Below are positions 1,767 to 38,271 of a DNA stretch of 64,000 nucleotides, in pieces (the first letter of the stretch is position 1; every line of letters begins with the position of its first letter). The position numbers and the translations under genes are program-made. The notes under the pieces are model-generated. The model did not search any database and had not been told where the DNA came from. It worked only from the letters and a program-made list of their open reading frames with translations. The stretch comes from an uncultured Actinomycetes bacterium (GTDB taxonomy: Bacteria; Actinomycetota; Thermoleophilia; RBG-16-64-13): assembly GCA_903873715.1 (NCBI GenBank), contig CAIQPS010000030.1, positions 22,253 to 86,252 on the forward strand, written 5' to 3'.

Positions 1767-1768
1767 CC

Positions 1769-4299: not shown

Positions 4300-5340
4300 G
4301 CAGCAGCCGTCGCAGGGCTGGTCGCCGGCAGCCGGACCGTCGGGCGCCGCACCTCCCGGCGATATCTCCATCGTGTACGGGTTGTACAGCCTGGGCCGGC
4401 TCTCGTTCACGTAGAGCTGGAAGATGTCCGGCCGGTTGTAGTGCCCGGCGAAATCGTGGCGCAACTTGGTGGCTATGCAGAGTTCCAGGTTGCAGTCGGC
4501 GTAGATGATGCCCTCTTCCGCTCCCATGGGACCGGCCAGGATGCGCTGGTTCGGGCCGACGATCACGGAGCCGCCGCAGCAGTCGGGGTCGCGCAGGAAG
4601 GCCTCACCCTCGGGGCCTACCTGGAGCTTGGCGATCATGTCCTCGTCGACCGTGCCGCAGGGGGAGATCACGAAGGCCTTGCTCATCTGCGCGAAGGCCT
4701 GCGAATCCACGGACACCCGGATGCGCATGGGGTCGCCGCTGGTAGGGAAGTGGTTGGGCCAGCTGCTGATGTGGAACCGCGTGCCCTGCGCGATGAACGC
4801 GAACGCCGCGAGCGGGTTAGAGTTCTCCCCGCAGATGAGTCCGCTGATGGGGCCGAACTCGGTGGGGATGGCCTTCATCGTGTCGCCGTAGCCCCCGGTG
4901 TGGACCAGGCGTTCGCCGACGGTGGGCATGACCTTCACGTGGCGCCCGAGGAACGAGCCGTCCGGGCCGATGAACAGCTGCGAGTTGTACATAGTGCCGG
5001 TGGTGTCGGGCAGCTTCTCGCACGCGCCCATGATCACGTAGGCGGCGGCTTCGCGCGCCGCGGCGCAGAGCTTGTCAAAATCGGGACTGGGCACTTCCAG
5101 CGAGTTCTTGAACAGCTCGACGGCCAGCTTGTTGGCGATGGCGCCCGTCGCCGGGTGGTGGTGATACCAGATGGGATGGGTGGGGATGAACCCTTCGGGG
5201 AAGGCGATGAGCTTCGCGCCGCCGGCCGCGGCCTCAGCGATCAGCCGGCAGGCCTTGTCCACCGAGGCTTCACGGTCGAGGAACACTGAGGCGGCCTGCA
5301 CCGCCGCGACCTTGACCACCGGATACACGTCGCCACTCAT
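4297..5340 (-). CDS. Nitrilase-superfamily carbon-nitrogen hydrolase (aliphatic/aryl nitrilase type)
   Basis: The 347-residue protein carries the Glu-Lys-Cys triad of the nitrilase superfamily: E49 in AFPEGFIP, K136 in GRHVKVMPT and C170 in GLICGENSNPLA. The catalytic cysteine is followed by GEN rather than the WEN common in many nitrilases, but the surrounding length and HPIWYHHHP segment fit branch 1 nitrilases (nitrile to acid plus ammonia) better than amidases. The ATG at 5340 is chosen because AAGGGAA lies just upstream; an in-frame extension to 5385 has no support. The C terminus is unusual in ending CDGCC. It is transcribed away from the nitroreductase gene and may belong to the same nitrogen-compound catabolism as the genes downstream. 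Confidence 0.85.
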   Translation of the reverse strand: MSGDVYPVVKVAAVQAASVFLDREASVDKACRLIAEAAAGGAKLIAFPEGFIPTHPIWYHHHPATGAIANKLAVELFKNSLEVPSPDFDKLCAAAREAAAYVIMGACEKLPDTTGTMYNSQLFIGPDGSFLGRHVKVMPTVGERLVHTGGYGDTMKAIPTEFGPISGLICGENSNPLAAFAFIAQGTRFHISSWPNHFPTSGDPMRIRVSVDSQAFAQMSKAFVISPCGTVDEDMIAKLQVGPEGEAFLRDPDCCGGSVIVGPNQRILAGPMGAEEGIIYADCNLELCIATKLRHDFAGHYNRPDIFQLYVNESRPRLYNPYTMEISPGGAAPDGPAAGDQPCDGCC

Positions 5341-5526
5341 GGCATTTCCCTTCAGTTTGCGGGGAGTCCTCCACGATGTTAGCACTCACTCACTTCTGCT
5401 GAGGGAGCGTCTGCGGTGCTCGGAGCGGGCAGGGGCTGCGATGACCGGCGCGCGGCGGGGTATCCTCATAGCGATACGATCAGCGAGCGCGCGCCACACC
5501 GCGGCGCGCCCGGACACGGAGGACGG

Positions 5527-6027
5527 ATGGAGGAGATCTTTACCCGCCGCAGCATCCGCAGGTACATGGCGGAGCCCGTCTCCGACGAGCAGGTGACCGA
5601 TATCATCCGCGCCGGCATGGCCGCGCCGTCCGCGGGCAACCAGCAGCCTTGGGCGTTCGTTGTGGTGCGCGACCAGGCGGTGCGCGACGTCATAGCGGAC
5701 GCCAATCCATACGGTGGCATGGCCAGCGACGCCCCCGTGGTCATCGTGCTGTGTGCCGACATGAGCAGGGACAACCGCCCCGGCTTCTGGCCCCAGGATT
5801 GCGCCGCCGCCACGCAGAACATGCTCCTCGCCGCCCACGCCATGGGTCTGGGGGCCGTCTGGTGCGGCACGTATCCCCGGGAGGAGCGGATGGGTCCCAT
5901 CAAGGAAGTGCTCGGGCTCCCCGAAGGCATCATCCCGTTCTCGGTCGTCCCGGTGGGGTATCCGGCCGAGCATCCCGCTCAGGCGGACCGCTTCGACGCC
6001 CGCCGCATCCATTACGATCGTTGGTAG
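5527..6027 (+). CDS. Nitroreductase-family flavoprotein
   Basis: This short (166-residue) nitroreductase-family protein begins MEEIFTRRSIRRYMAEPV, the FMN-phosphate-binding R-R-S-x-R segment, and continues with APSAGNQQPWAFVVV, the conserved flavin-site loop. Family members use NAD(P)H and FMN to reduce quinones, nitro groups or semialdehydes; RutE of pyrimidine degradation is in this family. GGAGG at 5519-5523 fixes the ATG at 5527, against an upstream in-frame extension. The flavin reductase gene follows after 10 bases, so the two are probably co-expressed and may share flavin chemistry. The true substrate cannot be inferred. Confidence 0.85.
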   Translation: MEEIFTRRSIRRYMAEPVSDEQVTDIIRAGMAAPSAGNQQPWAFVVVRDQAVRDVIADANPYGGMASDAPVVIVLCADMSRDNRPGFWPQDCAAATQNMLLAAHAMGLGAVWCGTYPREERMGPIKEVLGLPEGIIPFSVVPVGYPAEHPAQADRFDARRIHYDRW

Positions 6028-6037
6028 GGAGGAAGAC

Positions 6038-6619
6038 ATGAAGAAGTCGCTCGGCCCCGGTACCTGGCTGTATCCGACCCCTGTGTTCGTGGTGGGCACC
6101 TACGACGCGGCCGGCAAGCCGAACGTCATGACCGTCGCGTGGGGCGGTATCTGCTGCAGCAAACCGCCGTGCGTGGCCATCTCCGTGCGAAAGGCCACCT
6201 ACACCTACGCCAGCCTCATGGAGAAGAAGGAGTTCACCATCAGCATCCCCACCGAGAAGCAGGTGGTCCCAGCGGACTTCTTCGGCACGGCCTCCGGCCG
6301 CGACACCGACAAGTTCGCCGCCGCCGGGCTGACGCCGGTGCGCAGCGAGCTGGTGCATGCGCCGTACGTCGGCGAGTTCCCCTTCGTGCTTGAGTGCCGG
6401 ATCGTCCACGTGGCCGAGCTCGGCCTGCACACGCTCTTCGCCGCCGAGATACTGGACGTCAAGGTGGACGAGTCCTGCCTGGACGAACGCGGCCGCCCGA
6501 CCGCGGCGCTCATGAGACCCATCTGGTGGGGTCCCAGCGAGAACCGGTACTACGGCACCGGGGAGGATCTGGGCAAGGGCTTCGCGGTCGGCCGGGTGTT
6601 GCAGCCGGGCGGCGACTGA
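6038..6619 (+). CDS. Flavin reductase/flavoredoxin-like FMN-binding protein
   Basis: The 193-residue protein belongs to the split-barrel flavin reductase family (DIM6/NTAB, flavoredoxin-like). It opens with YPTPVFVVGTYDAAGKPNV and has the TVAWGGICCSKPPCVAISV strand pair that forms the FMN site, then an F(F)GTASGRDTDKF loop. Flavoredoxins from anaerobes and RutF-type NADH:flavin reductases both belong here; the sequence style resembles the flavoredoxin branch. Two adjacent cysteines (ICCSKPPC) near the flavin site are a visible peculiarity. It is 10 bases downstream of the nitroreductase and just upstream of the hydantoinase run, so it may supply electrons within the same pathway. Confidence 0.82.
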   Translation: MKKSLGPGTWLYPTPVFVVGTYDAAGKPNVMTVAWGGICCSKPPCVAISVRKATYTYASLMEKKEFTISIPTEKQVVPADFFGTASGRDTDKFAAAGLTPVRSELVHAPYVGEFPFVLECRIVHVAELGLHTLFAAEILDVKVDESCLDERGRPTAALMRPIWWGPSENRYYGTGEDLGKGFAVGRVLQPGGD

Positions 6620-6682
6620 CGGCTGGCTCGAGCAAACGCTTGTTGGGGACCGCACCGCTTCCGTAGCGAGCGCTTACTAGGT

Positions 6683-6694
6683 TATGATGGCCCG
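6683..6694 (+). promoter_or_regulatory. Putative leaderless promoter -10 for hyuA
   Basis: TATGAT at 6683-6688 is followed by six bases (GGCCCG) and then the hyuA ATG at 6695. This matches the TANNNT-to-start spacing of leaderless actinobacterial transcripts. No purine-rich ribosome site is present between the hexamer and the start. No clear -35 is visible. Two CpG-centred dyads lie upstream, at 6633-6642 and around 6671. Confidence 0.5.
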
Positions 6695-8785
6695 ATGAGA
6701 CACCGGGTCGGGGCAGATGTCGGGGGAACCTTCACCGATCTCGTCGCCATGGATGAGGCTGGTCGCATCACCGTGGCCAAAGCCCCCACCACCCCGGAAG
6801 ACCAGTCGGACGGTGTGCTCGACGCAGTGGCGCAAGCCGGTGTCGACCTTGCGTCCGTCGACTTCTTCTCGCATGGCACCACGGTGGGGGTGAATGCGGT
6901 CATCGAGAACAAGGGCGCCCGGGTGGCCATCATCACCACCGAAGGCTTCCGGGACGCGCTCGAGTTGCGTCGGGGGCAACGGGTCATCGACGACCCGGAC
7001 GACATGTACGACCTGCAGATGGACCTCCCGCAGGACTACGTCGGAGGCTACGACCCTCTGGTAAGGCGTCCGCTGCGCTTCGAAGTCCCGGAGCGCCTGG
7101 ACTACCAGGGCAGGGTACTCAAGGCTCTGGACGAGGACGTCGTGAGAGGCATCGCTGCCGAATTGCTTCGCATGGACGTCCAAGCCGTCGCCATCTGCTA
7201 CCTGTTCTCCTTCATGAACCCGGCCCACGAGCAGCGCACCGCTGAGATCCTCCGCGAGGAGTTGCCCGGGCTGCCCCTGTCGCTCTCGAGCGAGATCCTG
7301 CCGGTGATCCGGGAGTACGAACGCCTCAGCACGACGACCATCAACGCATACGTCATGCCGGTCATGCAGTCGTACCTCCGCCGGCTGCGCGAGAGGCTCA
7401 AGGAACTGGGGTTCGGCAACGAACTGTTCCTCATGCAGTCCAGCGGGGGGATCATGTCGGCCGCCGTGGCCGCCAACCGGCCCGTCTACACCATCGATTC
7501 GGGTCCGGCCGGCGGCGTCTCGGCAGCGGCCCGGTTGGGTGTCTCTCTCGGCTACCCGGACGTCATCTCCTTCGATATGGGCGGGACGACGGCCAAGATC
7601 TGTGTGATCCGCGGCGGCGAGCCCGTGGTGACCACGCGCTTCTGGTTGGGCGGACGCTACTTCATGGGCGTGCCGGTCATGGACATGGTCGAGATAGGTG
7701 CCGGTGACGGCAGCATAGCGTCTGTCGACGCAGCGGGCGCGGTCCACGTCGGGCCGCGGAGTGCGGGGTCCGTGCCGGGCCCGGCCTGCTACGGCAAGGG
7801 TGGCGACGAGCCCACCGTCACCGACGCGGATCTGGTCCTCGGCTACATCAACCCCGGCTACTACCTGGGCGGTGCCCTCACCGTCGACGTGGAGGCTTCG
7901 CGGGAGGCGATCCGGCGGAAGTTGGCCGAACGGTTGGGAGTCGGCATCGCGGAGGCCGCGCACGGCGTGTACCGGCTCGTGAACGCCAACATGATCGGGG
8001 CGACGCGGGTGGTGACGGTCCAGCGGGGCCATGACCCCCGGGACTTCACCCTCGTCGTGTCCGGGGGGACGGCCGCGATCCACGCGGTCCGCATGGCGCA
8101 GGAGTTGCGAATACCCAGGGTCGTGGTGCCCCTCAACGCCGGCGTCTTCTCCGCCGTGGGGCTCATCAGTGCCGACACCCGCTACGACGTGCATCGCTCG
8201 TACGTGGTGCGGCTGTCGCAGGCCGACCCGTCGAGGCTCGAGACGATCTTCGCGGAGCTCGCCGCTGAAGCGTCGGCCAGGATCGAGGAGTCCGGCTGTC
8301 CGCCCGAGCGCGTGGTGCTCCACAGGCACGCGGACATGCGCTACCTGGGGCAGGCCCACGAAGTGCCGGTGGAAGTGCCGGAGAGCATGGTGCTGCGCAT
8401 GGACGCCGCGGCTGTCGAACGGCTGGGGAATCTCTTCCACGACAAGCACATGCACCTGTTCGGTCACGACTCCCCGGGGTCCGAGGTCGAGTTGATGACC
8501 CTGTCCGTGTCCGCGGTCGGGCCGTTGGGCCTCACTCCCATGGCCGAGATAGCGGTGGGAGGCCCAGACCCGTACGAGGCGCGCAAGGGCCGCCGGCAGG
8601 TGTTCTTCGAGGAGGCAGGCGGCTACGTCGAGTGCGAGACGTACGAGCGGCTGCGCCTGTTGGCCGGCAACGTGGTCGCCGGACCCGCGGTGGTGGAACA
8701 GATGGACACCACGACGGTCATCCCGCCGGGGGAGACGGCCGTCGTGGACCGTTTCGGGACGCTCGTCGTGGAGTTGGCGCAGTGA
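6695..8785 (+). CDS. hyuA: Hydantoinase/oxoprolinase subunit A (HyuA, ATP-dependent)
   Basis: The 696-residue protein has the actin-like ATPase fold of the HyuA family. The N-terminal phosphate loop is ADVGGTFTDLVAMDE, a second phosphate-binding segment is SFDMGGTTAKICVI near residue 293, and the IDSGPAGGVSAAARLG adenosine-site region precedes it. HyuA works with HyuB to hydrolyse cyclic amides with ATP (N-methylhydantoinase, 5-oxoprolinase); relatives act in acetone or acetophenone carboxylation. HyuB follows with a GTGA overlap, confirming the pair. It heads a co-directional run including a molybdenum hydroxylase and an amidohydrolase, which suggests ring opening of a heterocyclic amide. 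The start lacks a ribosome site and may be leaderless. Confidence 0.93.
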   Translation: MRHRVGADVGGTFTDLVAMDEAGRITVAKAPTTPEDQSDGVLDAVAQAGVDLASVDFFSHGTTVGVNAVIENKGARVAIITTEGFRDALELRRGQRVIDDPDDMYDLQMDLPQDYVGGYDPLVRRPLRFEVPERLDYQGRVLKALDEDVVRGIAAELLRMDVQAVAICYLFSFMNPAHEQRTAEILREELPGLPLSLSSEILPVIREYERLSTTTINAYVMPVMQSYLRRLRERLKELGFGNELFLMQSSGGIMSAAVAANRPVYTIDSGPAGGVSAAARLGVSLGYPDVISFDMGGTTAKICVIRGGEPVVTTRFWLGGRYFMGVPVMDMVEIGAGDGSIASVDAAGAVHVGPRSAGSVPGPACYGKGGDEPTVTDADLVLGYINPGYYLGGALTVDVEASREAIRRKLAERLGVGIAEAAHGVYRLVNANMIGATRVVTVQRGHDPRDFTLVVSGGTAAIHAVRMAQELRIPRVVVPLNAGVFSAVGLISADTRYDVHRSYVVRLSQADPSRLETIFAELAAEASARIEESGCPPERVVLHRHADMRYLGQAHEVPVEVPESMVLRMDAAAVERLGNLFHDKHMHLFGHDSPGSEVELMTLSVSAVGPLGLTPMAEIAVGGPDPYEARKGRRQVFFEEAGGYVECETYERLRLLAGNVVAGPAVVEQMDTTTVIPPGETAVVDRFGTLVVELAQ

Positions 8786-10656
8786 GCGCGGTCGCCTCCG
8801 GAGGCCGGGGGGCGGGCGCCGGTCCGCGGGACGCCTTCACGCTGGGCGTGCTGCGCAGCCTGCTCGAGTCCATACCGTTGGAGATGGCCGAGGTGCTCAA
8901 GCGCACCTCGTACCATCCCATCTTCAACGAGGTCCTCGACTTCTCCACGGCGCTGCTCGATAGGGAAGGCCGCCTGATCGCGTCGTCCATGGGGGTGACC
9001 GTCCATCTCGGCGCCTTGGAACTCAGCGCGGGAGCGATCATCCGCTTCTTCGGCCCGGCCGGGCTCGCTCAGGGTGACGTGGTCATCCACAACAACCCGT
9101 TCCCAGGGGGGACCCACCTGCCCGACGTCGACGTGGTCGCTCCGGTGTATCACGAGGGCGAGTTGGTGGCGTATGCGGTCGCGCGGGGTCATCACGGGGA
9201 CATAGGAGGCATGCATCCGGGGAGCTTCGCCGGCGACACGGTGAGCATCTTCCAGGAAGGGGTGCGCATCCCGCCGATCAAGCTCTACAAGGCGGGCGTG
9301 CTCAACGAGGGGGTCCGCGACCTGTTCTTGGCCAATGTGAGAGTCCCTCAGTTCTCCTGGGGCGACCTGCAGGCTCAGGTGGCCGGCTGCCGGCTCGGGG
9401 CGAAGCGGATCGGCGAACTGTTCACCAAATACGGCTCAGACGAGATGGTGGCCACCATGGACTGGGCCATGGACCACTCCGAGCAGCTCATGCGGGCGGA
9501 GATCGCGGCCATCCCCGACGGGGTGTACGTGTTCGAGGACTTCCTCGATAACGACGGTATCGATACCGAGCGGCCGGTCAAGATCCACGTGAGGATCACC
9601 GTGGCCGGCAGTGACATCACCGTGGATTTCAGCGGCTCCGACGCGCAAGTGAAGGGCCCGGCCAACTGCGTCCTCGGCGTGACCTATTCGGCCACGTATT
9701 GTGCCCTCTTCAATCTCACCGACCCCACCATCCCCAAGAACCATGGGTGCTATCGCCCGGTGACCATCGTGGCCCCGGAGGGACTGGTGGTCAACGCCCT
9801 GTTCCCCGCGCCGGTGGTGAGCGGCAATACCGAGACGTCCCTGAGGATCATCGACACGGTCAGCGCCGCGCTGGCCCGGGTGATCCCTGAGAGGGTCATA
9901 GGTGGGGATTCGGGCACGGCCACCGCGCACATCGCCGGCGGCTTCGACCCGCGTACCGGTGAGTACTACGCCTGGTACCTCGGATCCGACCCCACGGCGT
10001 GGGGCGCCCGGGCGACCAAGGACGGCTTCGAACTGGCCGGCGGCCCGCGCATCGGGGGCAGCGTGTCCCAGGTGTCGATGGAGGTGTTCGAGACCCGCTA
10101 CCCGTTCCTGGTGGAGAGTTACGCGTTCATGCCGGACAGCGGCGGCCCGGGGCGGTTCCGGGGCGGGATGTCGGGAGTGACGATCATGCGGCCGCTGGGC
10201 CACGAGTGCGAGGTGGGCGGCGCCAACGACCGGTGCGTGATACCGCCGTACGGGGTGTTCGGGGGCATGCCCGGGCTGCACGGCGAGAACAAGATCATCC
10301 ACGCGGACGGCGCGGAGACGCCTATCGACCGGGCGGGGGGCAAGATCGCCCGGCCGGGAGACGTCCTCTACTTCCGGGCTCCGGGCGGCGGGGGCTACGG
10401 CGATCCCCTCGACCGGGATCTGGACCGTCTGCAGCACGACCTCGACATCGGCCTGGTCTCTCCCGAGAGCGCCTCACGCGACTACGGAGCGGTGCTGGAC
10501 GACACCGGCAGTTCGATCGACAGGGCGGCCACCGAGGTCAAGCGGGCTGCGCTCAGGGGCGAGTGGATGCGGTCGCGCATCTTCATAGACCAGAAGACCC
10601 GGCCCTTCGCCCGGATACCCTTCCGTACGGTGGCCATGGACGAGCAGATCCCATAA
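8782..10656 (+). CDS. hyuB: Hydantoinase/oxoprolinase subunit B (HyuB)
   Basis: The 624-residue partner of HyuA has the conserved HyuB segments FNEVLDFSTALLDREGRLIA near the N terminus, NNPFPGGTHLPDVDVVAP, and the C-terminal glycine-rich stretch LYFRAPGGGGYGDP. In characterised systems this subunit carries the metal-dependent hydrolytic centre that receives the phosphorylated cyclic amide. The GTG start at 8782 overlaps the hyuA stop (GTGA), giving translational coupling; a longer in-frame extension into hyuA is rejected. The specific ring substrate (hydantoin, N-methylhydantoin, oxoproline or another) cannot be told from the sequence. Confidence 0.92.
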   Translation: MSAVASGGRGAGAGPRDAFTLGVLRSLLESIPLEMAEVLKRTSYHPIFNEVLDFSTALLDREGRLIASSMGVTVHLGALELSAGAIIRFFGPAGLAQGDVVIHNNPFPGGTHLPDVDVVAPVYHEGELVAYAVARGHHGDIGGMHPGSFAGDTVSIFQEGVRIPPIKLYKAGVLNEGVRDLFLANVRVPQFSWGDLQAQVAGCRLGAKRIGELFTKYGSDEMVATMDWAMDHSEQLMRAEIAAIPDGVYVFEDFLDNDGIDTERPVKIHVRITVAGSDITVDFSGSDAQVKGPANCVLGVTYSATYCALFNLTDPTIPKNHGCYRPVTIVAPEGLVVNALFPAPVVSGNTETSLRIIDTVSAALARVIPERVIGGDSGTATAHIAGGFDPRTGEYYAWYLGSDPTAWGARATKDGFELAGGPRIGGSVSQVSMEVFETRYPFLVESYAFMPDSGGPGRFRGGMSGVTIMRPLGHECEVGGANDRCVIPPYGVFGGMPGLHGENKIIHADGAETPIDRAGGKIARPGDVLYFRAPGGGGYGDPLDRDLDRLQHDLDIGLVSPESASRDYGAVLDDTGSSIDRAATEVKRAALRGEWMRSRIFIDQKTRPFARIPFRTVAMDEQIP

Positions 10657-10675
10657 AGCGAGCAAGGAGCGACGC

Positions 10676-11083
10676 ATGAAGAAGAAGACCTATCCGCTCT
10701 ACTACGGGGGACAGAAGCAGCGCTTCGCCCGGTCTGTCGTCGTCGGCGACCTGGTGTTCCTCTCGGGGATGAGCGGCCGGACGATGGAGACCGGCGATGT
10801 CTCGTCCGCCGACGTGAGGGAGCAGATGCTCGTGGCGCTCGACAAGGTCAAGGCGGCCCTTGAGGAGGCGGGTAGCTCGATGGACCACATCGTGAAGACC
10901 ACCATCTACCTGAAGGACGTCAAGGACTACCAACTGATGCGCGACACCGAGTGGGAATACTGGCAGAAGCACGCGCCCGGGCTCATCGAAGAACCGCCCG
11001 CGAGCACCTTCGTCATGCCGGCTTCGCTCGCCCGCTCGAGCATGCTCGTCGAGATCGACGTCGTGGCCTGCCTCAAGGACTGA
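10676..11083 (+). CDS. RidA family (YjgF/YER057c/UK114) deaminase-like protein
   Basis: The 135-residue protein has the RidA fold signatures: VVGDLVFLSGMSG near the N terminus, DKVKAALEEAGSSMDHIVKTTIYLKDV in the middle and PASTFVMPASLARSSMLVEIDVVA at the C terminus. RidA proteins hydrolyse reactive enamines and imines; RutC in the pyrimidine Rut pathway belongs to this family. The canonical RidA active-site arginine appears replaced: the usual P-x-R-S/T stretch reads MPASLARSSM, so activity should not be assumed. It follows hyuB after 19 bases with an AAGGAG ribosome site and is almost certainly part of the same operon. Confidence 0.88.
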   Translation: MKKKTYPLYYGGQKQRFARSVVVGDLVFLSGMSGRTMETGDVSSADVREQMLVALDKVKAALEEAGSSMDHIVKTTIYLKDVKDYQLMRDTEWEYWQKHAPGLIEEPPASTFVMPASLARSSMLVEIDVVACLKD

Positions 11084-11140
11084 ACCAAAGATGTTCGCAA
11101 GCCGGCGGCCGTACGGCGCCGGCGCCGACAAGGAGCTGAC

Positions 11141-12001
11141 ATGAGCATGAAGCTGTACATCCTGGACGGCGGCCAGATGTGGGTCGAACGCGGGTTCCTA
11201 TGGCACTTCGGGGACGGTGCCGCTACCGGTGAGGAATACCACGAAGGCCCGTTCGGTATCCGCAACATCCAGTTCTTCATCGACCACCCGAAAGCCAAAG
11301 TGGTGTTCGACCTGGGCTTCACCAGCGAGTGGTTCGACCGACTCCCCGGCTTCCCGCATCGCCGGGGGCCGCACGGCCACCATCTCATGAAGACGCCCGA
11401 CCAGAACCCCGTGAGCCAGCTTGCCAAGATAGGCGTGAAACCTGATGACATCGACTATGTGGTCATCTCCCACCTCATGAGCGAGCATACGGGGTACCTG
11501 CCCGAGTTCGCCGGCACGAAGGCCAAGATCGTCGTGCAGGAGGCGGAGATGGAGTACGCGAGCCGGATCGGCACGCCGCCGCGCCCGGGTGACGAGCCCG
11601 CGGTGGAGCAGTTCCATACCTGGATGTACGTCCGCGACTACTTCGAGAAGAAGGGGCTCGACTACCTCTTCATCGACGGCGACTACGAGTTGCTGGGGAG
11701 GGACGTCGAGATACTCAGCCTGCCCGGCCACACGCCCGGCTTCCAGAACGTCATGGTGCGGTTGCCCAAGACCGGCCCGGTGTTCCTCTCGGCGTGCGAA
11801 CACCGCGGCATGTACTACGACGTCCCGGTGAACGGCTACGCGCCGGGCATCCCGCACGCCTTCACCTGGTCGGCGGCCGGTGAGCTTTGGAGTTTCAAAC
11901 GAGTGCGCGACCTTGTGGAGAAGGAAGAAGGCCAGATCTTCTTCGGTCACGACCAGGAGCAGTTCGAGACGCTCAAGGCCTGCCCGGAATACTACGAGTA
12001 G
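11141..12001 (+). CDS. Metallo-beta-lactamase-fold hydrolase, lactonase-like, with altered metal site
   Basis: The 286-residue protein resembles acyl-homoserine-lactone lactonases of the MBL superfamily in length and order: an N-terminal strand pair, VVFDLGFTS, VVISHLMSEHTGYLPEF, ILSLPGHTPGFQ and a final FFGHDQEQF. The hallmark HxHxDH is changed to H111-L-M-S-E115-H116, so the second histidine is missing and the aspartate is glutamate. The bridging aspartate region (normally GDA) reads SACEH. H197 and H270 remain. It may therefore bind one metal or a different one. Its place in the hydantoinase/molybdenum hydroxylase run suggests hydrolysis of a cyclic intermediate, but the function is unproven. 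Confidence 0.82.
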   Translation: MSMKLYILDGGQMWVERGFLWHFGDGAATGEEYHEGPFGIRNIQFFIDHPKAKVVFDLGFTSEWFDRLPGFPHRRGPHGHHLMKTPDQNPVSQLAKIGVKPDDIDYVVISHLMSEHTGYLPEFAGTKAKIVVQEAEMEYASRIGTPPRPGDEPAVEQFHTWMYVRDYFEKKGLDYLFIDGDYELLGRDVEILSLPGHTPGFQNVMVRLPKTGPVFLSACEHRGMYYDVPVNGYAPGIPHAFTWSAAGELWSFKRVRDLVEKEEGQIFFGHDQEQFETLKACPEYYE

Positions 12002-12052
12002 AAGCGTGCGGGCCTCGGCCGCGACCGCCGGGCCCGGGCAAAGGGGGAGACC

Positions 12053-12955
12053 ATGCACCGCGCGTTGTTGCCCTTCGAGTTCTCCGAGCCGGCATCCGTG
12101 GAGGAGGCCGTCGCCCTCGTCGACGGCGGCCGCGCCCGGGCGCTGGCCGGCGGCGTCGACCTGGTGCTGAAGATGCGGCTGCGGCAGGAGACGCCGGAGC
12201 GGGTGGTGAGCCTCCAGAAGATCGCCGGCCTGGACCACGTCCGCGTTGATGCCCATGGCGGCGGGGCGCTGCACATCGGAGCGCTCGCCACTCTGCGCCA
12301 GGTGGAGCAGTCGGCTGCGGTGACACAAGGCTGGCCGCTCCTGGCGGAGGCCATCGCGTCGATCGTCTCGATGCAGACCAAGGTCATGGGGACACTCGTG
12401 GGCAACCTGTGCGTGGGCACCCCCGCCTCCGACGTGGCGCCCGCGCTGTTCGCGCTGGGCGCGCGGGTCAAGATCGCAGGTGTCGGCGATGAGCGGGACA
12501 TCGCCGTCGAAGATTTCTTCCTGGGGCCGGGGGTCACCGCAGTCCGGCCTCATGAGCTGGTCACCGAGGTCGTGGTGCCCGCCCGGCCGGTGGGCAGTGC
12601 GGGCCGGTTCCTGAAGCTGTCCAAGACGGCTGATGATATCGCCAAGGTCAACGTCGCCGTCTCGGTGGCGTTCTCCCGCGGGACGTGCGCGCATGCGCGC
12701 ATAGCGATCGGGTCTGCTGCGCCGACGCCCGTCAGGGCCGTGGCCGCCGAAGAGTTGTTGTTGCGAGAAGATTGGTGCCCCGCGACGGCGAAGGCTGCAG
12801 CGGAGGCGGCTGCGCGGTCGGTCCGCCCGATCTCCGACGTGCGCTCCACCGCGGACTACCGGGCGGAGATGGTGAAGGTGCTCGTGCGGGACGCTCTGAC
12901 GCAGGCGGCTGATGGGGCCGGCGTACTCGACGGCCACGACGGGAAGGAGGCGTGA
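12053..12955 (+). CDS. Molybdenum hydroxylase FAD-binding subunit (CoxM/XdhB-like)
   Basis: The 300-residue protein is the medium subunit of a xanthine dehydrogenase-family enzyme. It has both FAD pyrophosphate-binding segments: ARALAGGVDLVLKMRL near residue 30 and TLVGNLCVGTPASDVAPAL near residue 115. The C-terminal CO-dehydrogenase flavoprotein domain follows (FLKLSKTADDIAKVNVAVS). It passes electrons from the 2Fe-2S subunit to NAD or another acceptor. The gene overlaps the next one (TGA/ATG), so the three subunits are made together. Confidence 0.92.
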   Translation: MHRALLPFEFSEPASVEEAVALVDGGRARALAGGVDLVLKMRLRQETPERVVSLQKIAGLDHVRVDAHGGGALHIGALATLRQVEQSAAVTQGWPLLAEAIASIVSMQTKVMGTLVGNLCVGTPASDVAPALFALGARVKIAGVGDERDIAVEDFFLGPGVTAVRPHELVTEVVVPARPVGSAGRFLKLSKTADDIAKVNVAVSVAFSRGTCAHARIAIGSAAPTPVRAVAAEELLLREDWCPATAKAAAEAAARSVRPISDVRSTADYRAEMVKVLVRDALTQAADGAGVLDGHDGKEA

Positions 12956-13440
12956 TGGCCAAGGAGATCGCGACCTTCATCGTCAACGGTCAGGGATACG
13001 AGGTGATCGTCGAGCCGCACATGCTTCTCATCGACGTGTTGCGGGACTCCATCGGTCTCGTCGGCACGAAGTACGGCTGCGGCGCCGGCGACTGCGGGGC
13101 ATGCACCGTGCTGCTTGAGGGGAAGCCGGTGTTCGCCTGTCTCACCCTTGCCGTGACGGCCAGGGACAGGAGCCTGACGACCATCGAGGGACTGGCGGAC
13201 GGCGCCGGACTGCACCCGATCCAGCAGGCCTTCGTGGACGCCGGGGCCGTTCAGTGTGGTTTCTGCACGCCGGGTATGGTGCTCACCACAAAGGCCCTGC
13301 TCGACGAGAACCCTGAACCGACGCGCGGAGAGATCAAGGCCTTCCTGGCCGGCAACCTGTGCCGGTGTACCGGCTATGTCAAGATCGTGGAGGCTGTCGA
13401 ATCGGCCGCGGGCATACTCAGGAACGGGGGTGCGCGATGA
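12955..13440 (+). CDS. Molybdenum hydroxylase 2Fe-2S subunit (CoxS/XdhC-like)
   Basis: The 161-residue protein has the two [2Fe-2S] clusters of the family. The plant-ferredoxin-type site is YGCGAGDCGACTVLL with a fourth cysteine in VFACLTL. The helical-domain site is QCGFCTPGMVL with NLCRCTGY. It relays electrons from the molybdenum cofactor to FAD. ATG at 12955 is favoured over GTG at 12952, with GGAGG just upstream; it overlaps the preceding stop and the following start (ATGA). Confidence 0.95.
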   Translation: MAKEIATFIVNGQGYEVIVEPHMLLIDVLRDSIGLVGTKYGCGAGDCGACTVLLEGKPVFACLTLAVTARDRSLTTIEGLADGAGLHPIQQAFVDAGAVQCGFCTPGMVLTTKALLDENPEPTRGEIKAFLAGNLCRCTGYVKIVEAVESAAGILRNGGAR

Positions 13441-15764
13441 CCAACGAGCCTCACTCCGAGTTCTCCTCTGTCGGCAAGTCTCTGGCCCGTCCGGATGTGG
13501 CGGCAAAAGCGACCGGTGCGGCCAGGTTCAGCGCCGACATCGCTCTGCCCGGCATGCTCATAGGGCGTATCCTGACCAGCCCGCACGCCCATGCCCGCAT
13601 CGTTGCCATCGATACGTCGCGGGCCAAGGCCCTACCGGGCGTGGCCGCGGTGATCACTCACGCCGACGTGCCGAAACGGGGCTTCACCCGCTCCGTGATG
13701 GCCGAAGGCCTGCCTCCGTTCGCTTACGAGACGGAGAACCTGGACCAGTACATCCTGTCGGACAAGGCCCGCTACATCGGGGACTGGGTCGCGGCCGTCG
13801 CAGCCGTCGACCTCTACGTGGCCGAACGGGCTCTGGACCTCATCGAAGTGGAGTACGAAGTGCTGCCGGCCGTCTTCGACCCCGAGGACGCGCTCGCGCC
13901 AGGCGCCCCGGTGGTGCACAAGGGCTGGAAGGACAACGTCGCCGGAGTCATCGAGCACCCGTTCAACCGGGGCGATCTGGATGCGGCGCTGGCCTCTTCC
14001 GCCCATGTCGCCGAGTTCTCGGGCCGCAATTCGCGGCAGAAACAGGCCCACATGGAGCCGGACGCCGCCATCGCGTCATGGGACGACAAGGGGCGCCTGA
14101 CGGTGTGGTCCCCCAGCCAGAACGCCCATCTCGCGAAGAAGGCGATGGGCCGCCGGGTGTTCGACATCGGCGAAGGCAACGTCCGCTGGATCACCCCGGC
14201 GGTCGGCGGCGGCTTCGGCGCACGCCTGTCGTTCGGCGTCGAGCCGGTGGCGGCGATGCTGGCGAAGGTCACCGGTAGACCCGTGAAGGTCTTGGTCACG
14301 CGTGAGGAAGACTTCAACGGTTGGAACAGCCGTACGGAGCAGAGGCAAACGATCCGGGTCGGCGTCGGCGAGGCCGGGGAGATCACGGCCATCGAGCAGG
14401 ACGTCCTGTCGGATTCCGGTGCCTACTTCTCGCACAGCGGCACGATCAGCGCCGTCAACATGCAGTCCACACTGGGCGTCATGCGTTCCCCCGTGGTGCG
14501 AGGCAAGGCGCTGATGGTGTACACCAACAATCCGACGGCCAGCGGCATGCGTGGCTACGGCAACCCGGAAGGCTCGTTCATACTGCAGCAGGCCCTCGAC
14601 ATAGCGGCCGAGAAGTGCGGCATGGACCCGGTGGACTTCCGGCTCAAGAACGCGCGCGGGCCGGGTGAGCCGAGTATGTGGGAGCCGCAGGCCATCACCA
14701 CCTGCGCGTTGCCGGAGTGCATCCGTCGCGGGGCCGTGGCCATAGGGTGGGACCAGAAGTGGCACGGCTGGGGTGCCGGCAAGGAGGGCCGCTACAGGCG
14801 CGGAGTGGGCATGTCCATCATGACGCACGCGAGCGGCGCAGGCGGGTTCCTGCTGGAGCATTCCACTGCGGTCATGAAGTTGGACGAAGACGGAACCGCC
14901 AGTCTCTCCGTGAGCCCCTGTGAGATGGGGCAGGGCATCCTGGGGGTCCTCGCGCAGATCGCGGCCGAGGGGGCCGGCCTCCGCTACGAGGACGTCCGGA
15001 CAGTCACCGGCGACACCGACGTGACGCTGTTCGACATCGGGACCCATGCCAGCCGTTCCACGTATGCCATCGGCAACGCGGCGCTCGATGCGGCGCGCAA
15101 AGTCAAGGCGATCGTGGTGGAGCGCGCGGCCCGCATGCTCGGGGTCGAGTCCGAGGGACTCGACGTTCGCGACGGCCGCGTCTTTGCCGTCGCCGACTCG
15201 AGCGTGGGCGTGAGCGTGGCCGAGGTGGCTCATGCGGGGATCTACGAGTACGGCACCGACGCCCGGCATATCATGGCCACCGGCAAGCATCAGAGTGTCA
15301 TGCATTGTCCCAACTTCCAGGCCGGTTTCGCCGAGATAGAGGTGGATGTCGAGACCGGTGTCATCAAGGTGCTCAAACTTGTGATCGCGCACGACATCGG
15401 CCGGGCCATCAACCCGCTGACGGTCGAGGGTTGTCTCGAGGGAGGGGCCGCGCAGGGTCTGGGCTACGCGTTGACCGAGGACCTCGTCATCGACAAGGGG
15501 ACCGGCAAAGTGGTCAGCGACAGCTTTGCCACGTACAAGATGCTCTCCGCACTCGACATGCCCGAAGTCGAGGTGATCCTGGTCGAGGAACCCGACCCCA
15601 CAGGCCCGTTCGGAGCCAAGGGGGTGGGCGAGACCGGTATCACGAACGTCGCTCCCGCGATAGCCAACGCCCTCTACGATGCCGCCGGTGTGCGGGTCCA
15701 TTCTCTGCCGATCACACCGGAGAAGGTCTTGGAAGCTCTGCGGGCGCACGGGGCGGGAGCGTGA
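13437..15764 (+). CDS. Molybdenum hydroxylase large (molybdopterin-binding) subunit, xanthine dehydrogenase family
   Basis: The 775-residue catalytic subunit binds molybdopterin cytosine dinucleotide or a similar cofactor. Visible signatures include VGGGFGARLSFGVEPVAA, the ASGMRGYGNPEGSF segment that contacts the cofactor and substrate, and GAKGVGETG near the C terminus, which holds the catalytic glutamate. The active-site loop of form I CO dehydrogenase (AYxCSFR) is absent, so this is a hydroxylase of a heterocycle or aldehyde rather than a CO dehydrogenase. The ATG at 13437 overlaps the upstream stop. Context (HyuAB, an amidohydrolase, RidA) points to ring hydroxylation of an N-heterocycle; the exact substrate is inference. 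Confidence 0.92.
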   Translation: MTNEPHSEFSSVGKSLARPDVAAKATGAARFSADIALPGMLIGRILTSPHAHARIVAIDTSRAKALPGVAAVITHADVPKRGFTRSVMAEGLPPFAYETENLDQYILSDKARYIGDWVAAVAAVDLYVAERALDLIEVEYEVLPAVFDPEDALAPGAPVVHKGWKDNVAGVIEHPFNRGDLDAALASSAHVAEFSGRNSRQKQAHMEPDAAIASWDDKGRLTVWSPSQNAHLAKKAMGRRVFDIGEGNVRWITPAVGGGFGARLSFGVEPVAAMLAKVTGRPVKVLVTREEDFNGWNSRTEQRQTIRVGVGEAGEITAIEQDVLSDSGAYFSHSGTISAVNMQSTLGVMRSPVVRGKALMVYTNNPTASGMRGYGNPEGSFILQQALDIAAEKCGMDPVDFRLKNARGPGEPSMWEPQAITTCALPECIRRGAVAIGWDQKWHGWGAGKEGRYRRGVGMSIMTHASGAGGFLLEHSTAVMKLDEDGTASLSVSPCEMGQGILGVLAQIAAEGAGLRYEDVRTVTGDTDVTLFDIGTHASRSTYAIGNAALDAARKVKAIVVERAARMLGVESEGLDVRDGRVFAVADSSVGVSVAEVAHAGIYEYGTDARHIMATGKHQSVMHCPNFQAGFAEIEVDVETGVIKVLKLVIAHDIGRAINPLTVEGCLEGGAAQGLGYALTEDLVIDKGTGKVVSDSFATYKMLSALDMPEVEVILVEEPDPTGPFGAKGVGETGITNVAPAIANALYDAAGVRVHSLPITPEKVLEALRAHGAGA

Positions 15765-16141
15765 CACTGCCGCGGGCGCGGACGGCGCTTCGGCGGGAAC
15801 TGAGCGGCCGGGGGTTTCCTGTCGCCGAAGACACGGTATCCCTGCGGAAGGAAGTCTACGTGTGGGGCGAAGGCGACCGCGCCGCCGCGGTGTTCGAGTT
15901 CAAGGCGACGGCGGTAGAAGCGGCCGAGACCATGTACCAGGGAAGGTGGACCAGCGATCTGCCACCTCGGTTCGCGGTGATGCCGGCCACGGAGCAGGAC
16001 GCCCCCGAGGCGGACTTCCTGCAGCAGGCGGGGTACAGTGTGCTCTTCTTCACGGGGGACGGGCAGGATATCCTGTTCATCGACCTCGAGAAAGCTCTCG
16101 AGAAGATAGGGCGGCCCGCCTCGGCGCCGCCGGCTACCTGA
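15761..16141 (+). CDS. Hypothetical protein translationally coupled to the molybdenum hydroxylase
   Basis: The GTG at 15761 overlaps the stop of the large subunit gene (GTGA), so this 126-residue protein is clearly part of the operon. I do not recognise the family. The chain reads as alternating strands and helices: SLRKEVYVWGEGDRAAAVFEFKATAVEA, then PPRFAVMPATEQDAPEADFLQQAGYSVLFFT. The VFEFKATA strand preceded by an acidic turn is reminiscent of a PD-(D/E)xK-type core, but the similarity is weak. It is not an obvious molybdenum-cofactor chaperone (no XdhC or MobA motifs). A pathway-specific accessory role is possible. Confidence 0.7.
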   Translation: MTLPRARTALRRELSGRGFPVAEDTVSLRKEVYVWGEGDRAAAVFEFKATAVEAAETMYQGRWTSDLPPRFAVMPATEQDAPEADFLQQAGYSVLFFTGDGQDILFIDLEKALEKIGRPASAPPAT

Positions 16142-16152
16142 GGAGACGGACG

Positions 16153-16860
16153 ATGACCGAGCAGAACAGCGGCTGCACCACCAAGCTGGTGACCATCCCG
16201 GCGCGGCCCGGCCCCATCGAGATCGACCTGGCGCGCACCGCCGTCATCGTCGTGGACATGCAGCACGCGTTCGTGAGCCCCGGCGGCATGTTCGCCGAGG
16301 CGGGGTACGACATCTCGGGCGCTCCGGCGTGCATCGACAACAACGCCCGCCTGCTGCCGGCGCTGCGCGCGGCGGGGGTCAAGATCGTGTACCTCATGAT
16401 GAGCTACAACCCCGACTACTCCGACTCCGGCGGACCCGGCTCGCCCAACTACCACAAGGAACTGGGGATGGCCCTCATGACGGCCGATCCAGCCAAGTGG
16501 GGCAGATACGTCACCTACGGCACCTGGGACGAGCGCATCGTCGACGAGATCGCTCCGCAGCCGGGCGATATCGTGGTGCGCAAGCAGCGGTACTCGGGCT
16601 TCGCCGGGACGAACCTGGACATGATCCTCAAGACCCACGGCATCAAGTACTGCTTCTATACGGGAGTCGCCACCAACGTGTGCGTGGAGACCACGCTCCG
16701 GGACGGCTACCTGCTCGACTACTGGCCCATCATGGTCTCGGACGCCTGCAACAACTCCGGGCCCGAGCACAACCGGCTCGCCACCGAATGGAACGTGGAG
16801 CACGCGTTCGGCTGGCTGGCCACGACCACTGATGTGATCACGGCGGTATCCGGGCACTGA
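16153..16860 (+). CDS. Isochorismatase-family cysteine amidohydrolase, RutB-like
   Basis: The 235-residue protein has the D-K-C triad of isochorismatase-fold hydrolases: D35 in VIVVDMQHAF, K144 in IVVRKQRYSGF and C177 in GVATNVCVETTLRDG. The length and the GTNLDMILKTHGIKYC and GVATNVCVETTLRDG segments resemble RutB (ureidoacrylate amidohydrolase) and N-carbamoyl amidohydrolases. It probably hydrolyses a linear amide or carbamoyl group released after ring opening. A GAGGAGA-like ribosome site precedes the ATG. The gene lies between the molybdenum hydroxylase unit and the DUF5661 gene on the same strand. Assignment as RutB itself is not justified because RutA is missing. Confidence 0.87.
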   Translation: MTEQNSGCTTKLVTIPARPGPIEIDLARTAVIVVDMQHAFVSPGGMFAEAGYDISGAPACIDNNARLLPALRAAGVKIVYLMMSYNPDYSDSGGPGSPNYHKELGMALMTADPAKWGRYVTYGTWDERIVDEIAPQPGDIVVRKQRYSGFAGTNLDMILKTHGIKYCFYTGVATNVCVETTLRDGYLLDYWPIMVSDACNNSGPEHNRLATEWNVEHAFGWLATTTDVITAVSGH

Positions 16861-16871: not shown

Positions 16872-17153
16872 ATGAGCCACCCGCATCATTTCGAACTCGA
16901 AGACGCCAAGAAGGTGGGCGACCGCCTGGGTGTCGACTGGAGCAGCGTCGAGGTGGAGCAGTTCCGCCGAGGTCTCGAGTTCGAGTTCGAGCACGGGACC
17001 GTGTATCCCGAGACCAACGTCACCGGTGACGACCCTCTTCTCACCGGCAAGATAGCCTGGGCACACCTGAAGGACATCCCCGACTATTACGACCGGCTCG
17101 AGGACATGGTCGCAGAGGCACAAGCATACTGGGAAGCCGCAAACGCCGGATAG
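16872..17153 (+). CDS. DUF5661 family protein
   Basis: The 93-residue protein matches the DUF5661 pattern: FELEDAKKVGDRLGVDWS, an acidic FRRGLEFEFEHG segment, then TNVTGDDPLLTGKIAWAHLKDIPDYY. Members are small, soluble, mostly helical and of unknown function. It sits 11 bases after the amidohydrolase gene and 9 bases before the aldolase gene, with an AAGGAGG ribosome site, so it belongs to this operon. No catalytic motif is recognisable. Confidence 0.75.
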   Translation: MSHPHHFELEDAKKVGDRLGVDWSSVEVEQFRRGLEFEFEHGTVYPETNVTGDDPLLTGKIAWAHLKDIPDYYDRLEDMVAEAQAYWEAANAG

Positions 17154-17162
17154 GAGCCATCG

Positions 17163-18110
17163 ATGATCGTCACCACCAAGCAACTGTTCGAAGTGGCCTA
17201 CGGCAAGTTCGCCGTCGGGGCCTACAACATCAACAATATGGAACAGACCCTGGGACTGTTCCGGGGCAACATCGATTCTCAGGCTCCGTTCATCATCCAG
17301 ATCTCCAAGGGCGCCCGCTCGTATGCCGACAAGCGCATGCTCGAAGCCATGATCAAAGCGGCCGACGAGATCTTCCCCGAAGCCATCTTCGCCGTGCATC
17401 TCGACCACGGCGACTTGCCCACGGCTCTGGATTGCATCGAGAGTGGCTTCTACTCCTCGGTGATGATCGACGCCTCCAGCCAACCGCTCGAGGAGAACAT
17501 CCGCATCACCCGGCAGGTCGTGGAAGCGGCGCATGCCCGGGGGATCTCGGTGGAGGCCGAACTGGGCCAGCTCGGCGGGGTGGAGGAGCACGTGCAGGTG
17601 GAAGAGAAGAACGCCCACCTCACCGACCCGGACGAGGCCGCCATCTTCGTTAAGGAATCGGGCTGCGACAGCCTTGCCGTGGCCATCGGGACCAGCCACG
17701 GCGCCTACAAGTTCACCGGAGCCCAAGGTCTGCGCCTCGACGTGGCGGCCGAGATCCAGAAGCGCCTGCCCGGCTTCCCGCTGGTCATGCACGGTTCCTC
17801 CTCGGTGCCGCAGGAAGAGGTGGCCCGCATCAACGCCGCCGGCGGCGACCTGAAGGGCGCCAAGGGCGTGGACGAGGACGAGTTCGCCAAGGCTGTGCCG
17901 CTGGGGGTCACCAAGGTCAACATCGACACGGACGGCCGCCTGGTGTGGACCCGTGTGCACCGGGAGTTCTTCCGCGATCACCCGGAGAAGTTCGACCTGC
18001 GCGACCCGGGCAAGGTCTTCATCGCCGAGTACGCGAAGTTCATCGCCCACAAGAACCTGAAGCTGCAGTCGGCCGGCACCTTGGAGATGGTGCGCAAGCA
18101 CGTGGCATGA
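17163..18110 (+). CDS. fba: Class II fructose-bisphosphate aldolase-family protein
   Basis: The 315-residue TIM barrel carries the class II zinc ligands: FAVHLDHGD near residue 82, the AIGTSHGAYKF histidine and the LVMHGSSSVPQEE histidine. The phosphate-binding stretch VTKVNIDTDGRL and the glutamate-rich VEAELGQLGG are also present. Class II aldolases cleave fructose-1,6-bisphosphate or related ketose phosphates. As the only aldolase in view it could be glycolytic fba, but its position at the end of the catabolic run leaves open a retro-aldol step on a pathway product. GGAG at 17154-17157 supports the ATG. Confidence 0.88.
   Translation: MIVTTKQLFEVAYGKFAVGAYNINNMEQTLGLFRGNIDSQAPFIIQISKGARSYADKRMLEAMIKAADEIFPEAIFAVHLDHGDLPTALDCIESGFYSSVMIDASSQPLEENIRITRQVVEAAHARGISVEAELGQLGGVEEHVQVEEKNAHLTDPDEAAIFVKESGCDSLAVAIGTSHGAYKFTGAQGLRLDVAAEIQKRLPGFPLVMHGSSSVPQEEVARINAAGGDLKGAKGVDEDEFAKAVPLGVTKVNIDTDGRLVWTRVHREFFRDHPEKFDLRDPGKVFIAEYAKFIAHKNLKLQSAGTLEMVRKHVA

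Positions 18111-34938: not shown

Positions 34939-38271
<3,333 letters not shown>

What the first reader, a model, noticed from the sequence alone, without database searches (positions are those of the whole stretch)
5527..16860. A possible new nitrogen-heterocycle pathway combining Rut-like families with a molybdenum hydroxylase and HyuAB
Seen: one strand carries in order nitroreductase, flavin reductase, hyuA, hyuB, RidA, MBL-fold hydrolase, three molybdenum hydroxylase subunits, an unknown protein and an isochorismatase-fold amidohydrolase, with several stop/start overlaps. Known: RutE, RutF, RutC and RutB of pyrimidine degradation belong to the nitroreductase, flavin reductase, RidA and isochorismatase families. 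RutA is missing here. Inference: the molybdenum hydroxylase activates a ring, HyuAB opens a cyclic amide with ATP, and the MBL protein and amidohydrolase finish the hydrolysis, so this could be an alternative to Rut or a route for another heterocycle (hydantoin, creatinine, nicotinate- or purine-like).
Basis: partly seen in the sequence, partly recalled or inferred. Interest (0 to 1): 0.8.

Follow-up and report, generated by a model that had tools for sequence, protein, structure and literature searches.

The report
Molybdenum and ATP ring-opening gene block
A bacterium carries a ten-kilobase block of nine genes, apparently inserted, that would likely break down a still unidentified nitrogen-containing ring without oxygen, a molybdenum enzyme being predicted to hydroxylate it and an ATP-using enzyme then to open it; its likeness to the known uracil pathway is mostly superficial.

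Summary
Its boundaries and the Rut comparison do not hold. Nitroreductase and flavin reductase belong to an older neighbourhood kept in relatives that lack the rest; the unit is hyuA to the RutB-like gene, 6695-16860, between a flavin reductase and a DUF5661 gene whose matches are 78 bp apart in relative G008. In samples of 399 class genomes, this type of HyuB is in 3 and this type of CoxL in 2, both among those 3. In G004 hyuA-hyuB and Rid-coxM-coxS-coxL lie at the ends of two contigs. So HyuAB + Rid + molybdenum hydroxylase looks like a patchily inherited module; MBL and the u126/RutB-like pair look like add-ons. HyuAB keeps the ATP and metal motifs of lactam hydrolases. The RutB-like protein keeps the catalytic triad but is below the RutB cut-off; the Rid protein lacks the arginine that RutC needs; the MBL protein has changed metal ligands; no RutA was found in the genome. 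Best reading: molybdenum hydroxylation of an N-heterocycle to a cyclic amide, then ATP-driven opening by HyuAB, resembling the proposed indoleacetate route. Substrate unknown. New variant of a known kind, moderate interest.

The parts
6695..8785 (+). hyuA: ATP-dependent cyclic amidohydrolase, ATP-binding subunit (696 aa)
   Evidence: Pfam Hydant_A_N/Hydantoinase_A/Hydant_A_C; CapA model 607 bits, cut-off 1000; DxGGTxTD at residue 8 and DxGGT at 294; 72% in G004
8782..10656 (+). hyuB: metal-binding ring-opening subunit (624 aa), overlaps hyuA by 4 bp
   Evidence: Pfam Hydantoinase_B 6.6e-168; CapB metal ligands conserved as D53, H112, D115, H137 (alignment, positions); 85% in G004, 78% in G006
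10676..11083 (+). Rid-family protein lacking the Arg105 equivalent (Ser110)
   Evidence: PF01042 6.4e-23; alignment with E. coli RidA and RutC; 78% in G006, 82% over 109 aa in G004
11141..12001 (+). MBL-fold, AHL-lactonase-like protein with altered metal motif (accessory, not conserved)
   Evidence: Below all NCBIfam cut-offs it matches; HxHxDH reads HLMSEH; not between Rid and coxM in G004; only the own genome of 396 phylum genomes at E<=1e-50
12053..12955 (+). coxM: FAD subunit of molybdenum hydroxylase
   Evidence: FAD_binding_5 and CO_deh_flav_C; 58% in G004
12955..13440 (+). coxS: [2Fe-2S] subunit of molybdenum hydroxylase
   Evidence: Fer2 and Fer2_2; 66% in G004
13437..15764 (+). coxL: molybdopterin-binding catalytic subunit
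   Evidence: MoCoBD_1/2; nearest NCBIfam models XdhA 625 (cut-off 780) and 4-HBCR alpha 551 (cut-off 995) bits; 77% in G004; 57% in Gemmobacter fulvus; GxGE Glu aligned
15761..16141 (+). u126: small conserved protein of unknown function, possibly PD-(D/E)XK-like fold
16153..16860 (+). RutB-like cysteine amidohydrolase (isochorismatase fold)
   Evidence: RutB model 241.9 bits, cut-off 377.95; 42.9% identical to E. coli RutB (96 of 224 aligned); triad D35, K144, C177
5527..6619 (+). Nitroreductase (5527-6027) and flavin reductase (6038-6619): older neighbourhood, judged NOT part of the unit
   Evidence: Flavin reductase in 15 of 18 family genomes; synteny with FBA in relatives lacking the block
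16872..18110 (+). DUF5661 (16872-17153) and class II aldolase (17163-18110): far side of the presumed insertion
   Evidence: In G008 the flavin reductase and DUF5661 matches lie 78 bp apart

Best explanation
The nine genes at 6695-16860 form a block, apparently inserted, that would likely act as a catabolic operon in which a three-subunit molybdenum hydroxylase (CoxMSL) is predicted to hydroxylate an N-heterocycle to a cyclic amide with water and a two-subunit HyuAB enzyme would then open that ring at the cost of ATP. Shown by sequence: gene content, tight co-directional spacing, ATP and metal motifs in HyuAB, the catalytic triad in the RutB-like protein, HyuAB-Rid together in G006, HyuAB and Rid-CoxMSL at two contig ends in G004, and flanking genes that are nearly adjacent without the block in G008. 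Inferred: that CoxMSL and HyuAB work in sequence on one substrate; that the opened ring carries an amide or N-carbamoyl group which the RutB-like amidohydrolase removes; that the Rid protein, lacking the deaminase arginine, does something other than RutC's enamine deamination; that the MBL protein and u126 are accessory. No step consumes O2 in this reading, unlike RutA. The substrate is unknown; a ring with an N-CO-N group after hydroxylation (pyrimidine-, imidazole- or purine-like) fits an N-carbamoyl hydrolase best, but that is a guess.
For: Families and motifs. Linkage: G004 has hyuA-hyuB at the end of one contig (L026) and Rid-coxM-coxS-coxL, beginning inside Rid, at the end of another (L075), 58-85% identical. 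Restricted co-occurrence: in class samples of 399 genomes (own included), HyuB of this type (>=78%) in 3 (G000, G004, G006) and CoxL of this type (E<=1e-205) in 2 (G000, G004); all three are of one family, so this is not corrected for kinship. Insertion: in G008 the flanking flavin reductase and DUF5661 matches are 78 bp apart. Cofactor supply: MoaA C-terminal domain and XdhC_C domain in the genome. None of the block's proteins matched a carboxylase gamma model, and the caprolactamase models score far above the carboxylase models (u126 was scanned with Pfam only). Precedent: ring hydrolysis of 2-oxoindoleacetate proposed for the hydantoinase-like IaaCE, ATP-dependent (PMC8453981, passages; PMC5214803, passages). 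The nearest named CoxL found (57%) lies in a Gemmobacter fulvus cluster with a second molybdenum hydroxylase, a Rid protein also lacking the Arg, a VOC protein and a FAH hydrolase, which looks like a ring-degradation cluster.
Against: The Gemmobacter cluster has this CoxL type without HyuAB within 14 kb either side. G006 has hyuAB-Rid, then an opposite-strand gene and no coxL in the last 0.87 kb of its contig, and its best CoxL is 44%, so neither partner is strictly tied to the other. The two G004 contigs were not shown to be contiguous. The RutB-like gene is at a different place in G006, not found in G004 (76% complete), and in G001 stands without hyu or cox genes. Among 23 contigs of at least 8 kb in the HyuB type's listing (56 clusters), one shares its length with a contig of the RutB-like listing. 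XdhC_CoxI (PF02625) was not found in the genome. No transporter or regulator inside the block; no substrate evidence at all.
Confidence: 0.5

Rival explanations
1. Composite of two or three independent modules: HyuAB-Rid is a lactam or ureide hydrolase, CoxMSL oxidises something unrelated, and u126 with the RutB-like protein is a third unit; they are neighbours only through insertion and gene shuffling.
For: u126 and RutB-like share contig lengths in 5 of 25 other u126 clusters against 0.41 expected by chance, and no u126 contig length appears in the HyuB listing; G006 has hyuAB-Rid with no coxL seen beside it, and its RutB-like gene on another contig with an XdhC_C gene; Gemmobacter has CoxL without HyuAB.
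Against: CoxL of this type was found only in genomes that also have this HyuB (2 of 2, within 3 of 399) and in the window the genes from hyuA to RutB-like overlap or lie within 57 bp of each other.
Confidence: 0.3
2. One reading: an alternative Rut pathway. HyuAB hydrolyses uracil itself (or a pyrimidinone hydroxylated by CoxMSL) to ureidoacrylate with ATP, the RutB-like protein yields aminoacrylate and carbamate, Rid deaminates it.
For: RutB-like is 42.9% identical to RutB with the triad intact and RutB is its best PDB match by far (211 vs 97 bits for the next protein); no RutA in the genome; pyrimidine biosynthesis genes and a carbamate kinase lie on either side, though this may be old synteny.
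Against: Rid has Ser at the Arg105 position in all three carriers, and RutC R104A is inactive (PMC8113886, passages); RutB-like differs from RutB at Y29F, Y35M, N72M and W74Y (read by eye; not known to line the pocket) and scores below the RutB cut-off; nitroreductase and flavin reductase are not RutE or RutF by cut-off and not part of the block.
Confidence: 0.1
3. HyuAB is a carboxylase-type or 5-oxoprolinase-type enzyme and CoxMSL an aldehyde or purine oxidoreductase in general nitrogen scavenging.
For: HyuAB belongs to the superfamily that includes acetone/acetophenone carboxylases and oxoprolinases; CoxL scores best against XdhA-type models.
Against: No gamma subunit seen; caprolactamase models score 607 and 348 bits against 358 and 135 for the best acetophenone carboxylase models. 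CoxL is below the XdhA cut-off (625 vs 780).
Confidence: 0.1

Closest known systems
Anaerobic indoleacetate degradation (hydantoinase-like IaaCE, Aromatoleum aromaticum)
   Same: ATP-dependent HyuAB-family hydrolase proposed to open the ring of a 2-oxo-N-heterocycle (PMC8453981, PMC5214803, passages read). That a molybdenum enzyme makes the 2-oxo compound is recalled from the original paper (PMC3370604, not held).
   Different: No CoA-activating genes among the block's Pfam matches; instead Rid, u126, RutB-like and MBL genes. HyuAB was not compared directly with the IaaCE sequence.
Caprolactamase CapAB (Pseudomonas jessenii, PDB 6YRA)
   Same: HyuA and HyuB match the CapA/CapB models best; ATP and Asp-His-Asp-His metal motifs conserved
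   Different: Below both equivalog cut-offs; vicinal Cys pair of the CapB pocket not present at the aligned place; HyuB about 40 residues longer; molybdenum hydroxylase beside it
Rut pyrimidine pathway (rutABCDEFG, E. coli)
   Same: A RutB relative (42.9%) with the catalytic triad, and a Rid-family protein
   Different: No RutA in the genome; none of the tested proteins reaches the RutB, RutC, RutE or RutF cut-off; Rid lacks the essential Arg; ring-opening would be by HyuAB, not a flavin monooxygenase
N-methylhydantoinase plus N-carbamoylsarcosine amidohydrolase (creatinine route)
   Same: HyuAB followed by an isochorismatase-fold N-carbamoyl hydrolase (pathway recalled)
   Different: RutB-like protein is far closer to RutB (211 bits) than to N-carbamoylsarcosine amidohydrolase 1nba (54 bits); no molybdenum hydroxylase in that route (recalled)
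Gemmobacter fulvus plasmid p1 molybdenum hydroxylase cluster
   Same: CoxL 57%, CoxS 62%, and a Rid protein without the Arg (Cys there)
   Different: No HyuAB in the 30 kb read; has a second molybdenum hydroxylase, VOC, FAH, cupin, CoxG, regulator and ABC transporter

Membership tests
Rut pyrimidine pathway | RutA pyrimidine monooxygenase | tested here: not met
   TIGR03612: 0 matches in the own genome; control rang in 7 of 14 incl. E. coli
Rut pyrimidine pathway | RutB at equivalog level | tested here: not met
   241.9 bits against cut-off 377.95; triad present
Rut pyrimidine pathway | RutC with catalytic Arg | tested here: not met
   33.6 vs 169.1 bits; Ser at the aligned position
   31.8 vs 254.75 and 38.2 vs 152 bits
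Rut pyrimidine pathway | RutD and RutG | not tested
   no search of the genome made for these
ATP-dependent cyclic amidohydrolase (HyuAB/OplAB/CapAB) | Two subunits with DxGGTxTD and DxGGT ATP motifs | tested here: met
   HyuA residues 8 and 294; Pfam
ATP-dependent cyclic amidohydrolase (HyuAB/OplAB/CapAB) | Asp-His-Asp-His metal site in the B subunit | tested here: met
   D53, H112, D115, H137 aligned to CapB D41, H99, D102, H124
ATP-dependent cyclic amidohydrolase (HyuAB/OplAB/CapAB) | ATP-dependent ring hydrolysis | not testable with these tools
   needs an assay
Xanthine oxidase family molybdenum hydroxylase | FAD, 2x[2Fe-2S] and molybdopterin subunits with the active-site Glu | tested here: met
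   Pfam; GVGE aligned with structures and E. coli XdhA; that this Glu is the catalytic one is recalled
Xanthine dehydrogenase proper | XdhA equivalog score | tested here: not met
   625 vs cut-off 780
Indoleacetate-type (Mo hydroxylase + IaaCE) pathway | CoA-activation and mutase genes in the same cluster | tested here: not met
   None among the Pfam hits for the genes of the block; feature recalled from memory
Indoleacetate-type (Mo hydroxylase + IaaCE) pathway | Mo hydroxylase gene linked to HyuAB | tested here: met
   window; in G004 at two contig ends, join not shown
AHL lactonase (MBL) | HxHxDH dinuclear metal motif | tested here: not met
   HLMSEH; also an Asp aligned to Glu further on
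RidA-type enamine/imine deaminase | Arg105 (S. enterica numbering) | tested here: not met
   Ser in window, G004, G006; about 10% of RidA have Ser (PMC4433059, passage); a nearby Arg120 is conserved in all three, role unknown
PD-(D/E)XK fold (u126) | alpha-beta core with D...ExK | tested here: inconclusive

The most novel reading that the evidence does not exclude
An oxygen-independent counterpart of Rut: a molybdenum hydroxylase makes a pyrimidine-type cyclic ureide, HyuAB pays ATP to open a ring that is hard to hydrolyse, a RutB relative strips the carbamoyl group, and an arginine-less Rid protein does a new reaction, giving anaerobes a route to ring nitrogen that Rut cannot offer.
Probability: 0.13. 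Interest if true: 0.75.

Novelty: new variant of a known kind. Interest (0 to 1): 0.42.

Why it matters
If right, it shows a portable module (HyuAB + arginine-less Rid + molybdenum hydroxylase) that could open N-heterocycles without oxygen; close HyuB relatives (72-76%) are named as Dehalococcoidia and Deltaproteobacteria. It would also give a concrete setting for a Rid protein that lacks the deaminase arginine; the role of such proteins is open (PMC4433059 calls the arginine-less Rid4-7 subfamilies 'mysterious'; I did not assign this Rid to a subfamily). It also corrects a tempting misreading: adjacent nitroreductase and flavin reductase genes do not make this a Rut operon.

Tried and rejected
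Rejected: Rut membership (cut-offs); flavin reductase and nitroreductase as members; carboxylase reading of HyuAB (no gamma subunit seen, model scores); 4-hydroxybenzoyl-CoA reductase (551 vs 995 bits). Other HyuAB/CoxMSL neighbours in the family (G002, G007, G011) have HyuA, HyuB and CoxL 29-46% identical to the window's, some with biotin carboxylase or mutase-like genes by eye, and were not taken as the same system.

Led nowhere: genome-contig scan with the RutB-like protein gave 2 loci, one of them the same contig as G001 by length and coordinates, the other a 25% match in Brevibacillus; two viral-contig scans gave none; plasmid searches gave no HyuB, HyuA, Rid, MBL or RutB-like record at 60% or more, and of four hydantoinase contexts opened none lists a molybdenum hydroxylase in the stretch shown (that gene table is incomplete); the Shinella CoxL (42%) sits with a nucleobase symporter, amidohydrolases and UbiD-type genes and the Roseomonas RutB relative (48%) with a FAH-family gene, neither with HyuAB listed; the Niveispirillum record had no annotation. 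Paper searches with co-occurrence terms: no paper, two unrelated by title and abstract, two by uracil/hydantoinase/molybdenum terms that I did not open; some searches gave listings, from which I read passages of PMC5806882 (not used), PMC4433059, PMC5214803, PMC8453981 and PMC8113886. The library holds open-licence papers only. The u126 fold search gave no match that stands clear of unrelated ones; PF02625 was not found in the genome although XdhC_C was.

Limits: contig-length coincidence is a proxy, not a neighbourhood; lengths were copied by hand (120, 26 and 120 rows listed, of 2994, 26 and 1876; the first two with the window's own row). Of the 120 HyuB rows, the first 56 (full-length, >=62%) were taken as the type; 64 rows (lower identity, or partial, some of these partial rows at 59-86%) were set apart. 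One further length (4910) is shared with a 43% HyuB; 0.58 shared lengths are expected by chance for the full list, so the single 11,609-bp coincidence is weak. Genome samples are draws from larger groups, not complete; each report 399 genomes, which I take to be the same or nearly the same sample.
Full report
WHAT IS THERE. The window is part of an 86-kb contig of a 3.3-Mb, 96.9%-complete genome. All eleven genes of the finding are present in order on the + strand. Spacing is operon-like: four overlaps of 1-4 bp and gaps of 10-75 bp.

BOUNDARIES. The flavin reductase is in 15 of 18 family genomes and in 13 of 13 of good quality, and no match was found at that threshold (E<=1e-40) in G004 (76% complete), G006 (93%) and G013; G004 and G006 are the two other carriers of this HyuB. 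I looked at seven relatives' stretches around it: in six of seven it lies near the same aldolase with PEPCK or aminotransferase genes beyond (the seventh, G002, shares only the flavin reductase), and in none of the seven does the window's hyuA, hyuB, coxM, coxS or coxL match. In G008 the flavin reductase and DUF5661 matches are 78 bp apart; in the window the whole block 6695-16860 lies between them. In G015, G010 and G016 other DNA of 1.4, 3.2 and 5.8 kb lies there; in G017 DUF5661 was not found. In G001 only a RutB-like gene (70%) and a lipoprotein-like gene (by eye) lie between flavin reductase and aldolase. So nitroreductase and flavin reductase are old neighbours, not pathway members, and the unit is hyuA to RutB-like. 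Insertion and loss cannot be told apart with certainty, but the patchy spread favours gain.

WHAT RECURS. HyuB of this type (78% or more) is in 3 of 399 class genomes (16 genomes matched at E<=1e-125, the other 13 at 40-44%) and CoxL of this type in 2 of 399, both among the three. In G004, hyuA-hyuB runs to one contig end and Rid-coxM-coxS-coxL starts inside Rid at another contig end (L026, L075); there is no MBL gene between Rid and coxM there and no RutB-like match at E<=1e-30 in that 76%-complete genome. In G006, hyuA-hyuB-Rid are together, followed by an opposite-strand gene up to the contig end; its RutB-like gene is on another contig with an XdhC_C gene. The MBL protein has no relative at E<=1e-50 in 395 other phylum genomes. 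Across protein catalogues u126 has 25 homologues besides itself and shares contig lengths with the RutB-like list in 5 of 25 (0.41 expected by chance), while the HyuB type shares one (11,609 bp) of 56. The picture is a core (HyuAB-Rid, in two of three carriers with CoxMSL), plus a u126-RutB-like pair and an MBL protein.

NAMED RELATIVES. Among the ten best of 1234 plasmid records, Gemmobacter fulvus p1 stands out with a CoxL at 57%; the others are at 41-42%. There it sits with a second molybdenum hydroxylase, a Rid protein also without the Arg, VOC, FAH, cupin, CoxG, malonic semialdehyde reductase and an ABC transporter, but no HyuAB. In Agrobacterium salinitolerans and Sinorhizobium americanum an AHL-lactonase-family MBL gene lies between coxS and coxL, so MBL and molybdenum hydroxylases do associate elsewhere; those MBL proteins keep the metal motif.

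MECHANISM. The best reading is hydroxylation of an N-heterocycle by CoxMSL followed by ATP-driven lactam opening by HyuAB. The precedent for the second step is the proposed IaaCE reaction on 2-oxoindoleacetate (PMC8453981 and PMC5214803, passages); that a molybdenum enzyme makes its substrate is recalled. What follows (RutB-like amidohydrolase, Rid, MBL) is inference. The strongest results against are the CoxL type without HyuAB in Gemmobacter and the loose attachment of the RutB-like gene. A direct Rut analogue is possible but disfavoured by the Rid residue and the scores.

VERDICT. Observation confirmed; interpretation partly supported; a new variant of a known kind with unknown substrate. 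Confidence 0.5 in the sequential mechanism.

Noticed in passing
window 27445-28392, 34939-38271, 39193-40140; L001 8328-9248, 13912-15336, 15333-16538: Carbamate kinase, carB and dihydroorotate dehydrogenase downstream and pyrB, pyrC-type and carA upstream: the block lies between two halves of a pyrimidine-synthesis region. Could be old synteny.
   Followed up: partly
L120 (Gemmobacter fulvus plasmid p1, NZ_CP076362.1): Cluster with two molybdenum hydroxylases, an arginine-less Rid, VOC, FAH and malonic semialdehyde reductase: looks like a ring-degradation cluster in a named strain.
   Followed up: partly
L122 and L123, 10001-10762: AHL-lactonase-family MBL gene overlapping coxS and coxL in Agrobacterium salinitolerans and Sinorhizobium americanum plasmids.
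   Followed up: partly
L004 8812-9462: PEPCK in G001 seems degraded: two short pieces at 36% and 52% where four relatives have 74-80% over about 606 residues.
   Followed up: no
window 1763-2029: 88-aa protein with no Pfam match, conserved at 45-53% in four of seven relatives' stretches.
   Followed up: no
window 552-1766 and 2157-3539: Carboxynorspermidine-synthase-like protein (205 vs cut-off 800 bits) and glutamate-semialdehyde-aminomutase-like protein (350 vs 398) found together in four of seven relatives' stretches, in three with a permease: an unidentified amino-acid pathway.
   Followed up: no
window 4297-5343 (-): Nitrilase of the Nit6803 type, below cut-off (174 vs 503 bits), on the opposite strand and without a match in the relatives' stretches searched.
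   Followed up: no
G000:C18:53881-54549 (L051): Second RutB-like paralogue (50%) in the same genome, on another contig.
   Followed up: no
G000 genome: XdhC_C (PF13478) found but XdhC_CoxI (PF02625) not found: the maturation factor may be a one-domain form.
   Followed up: no
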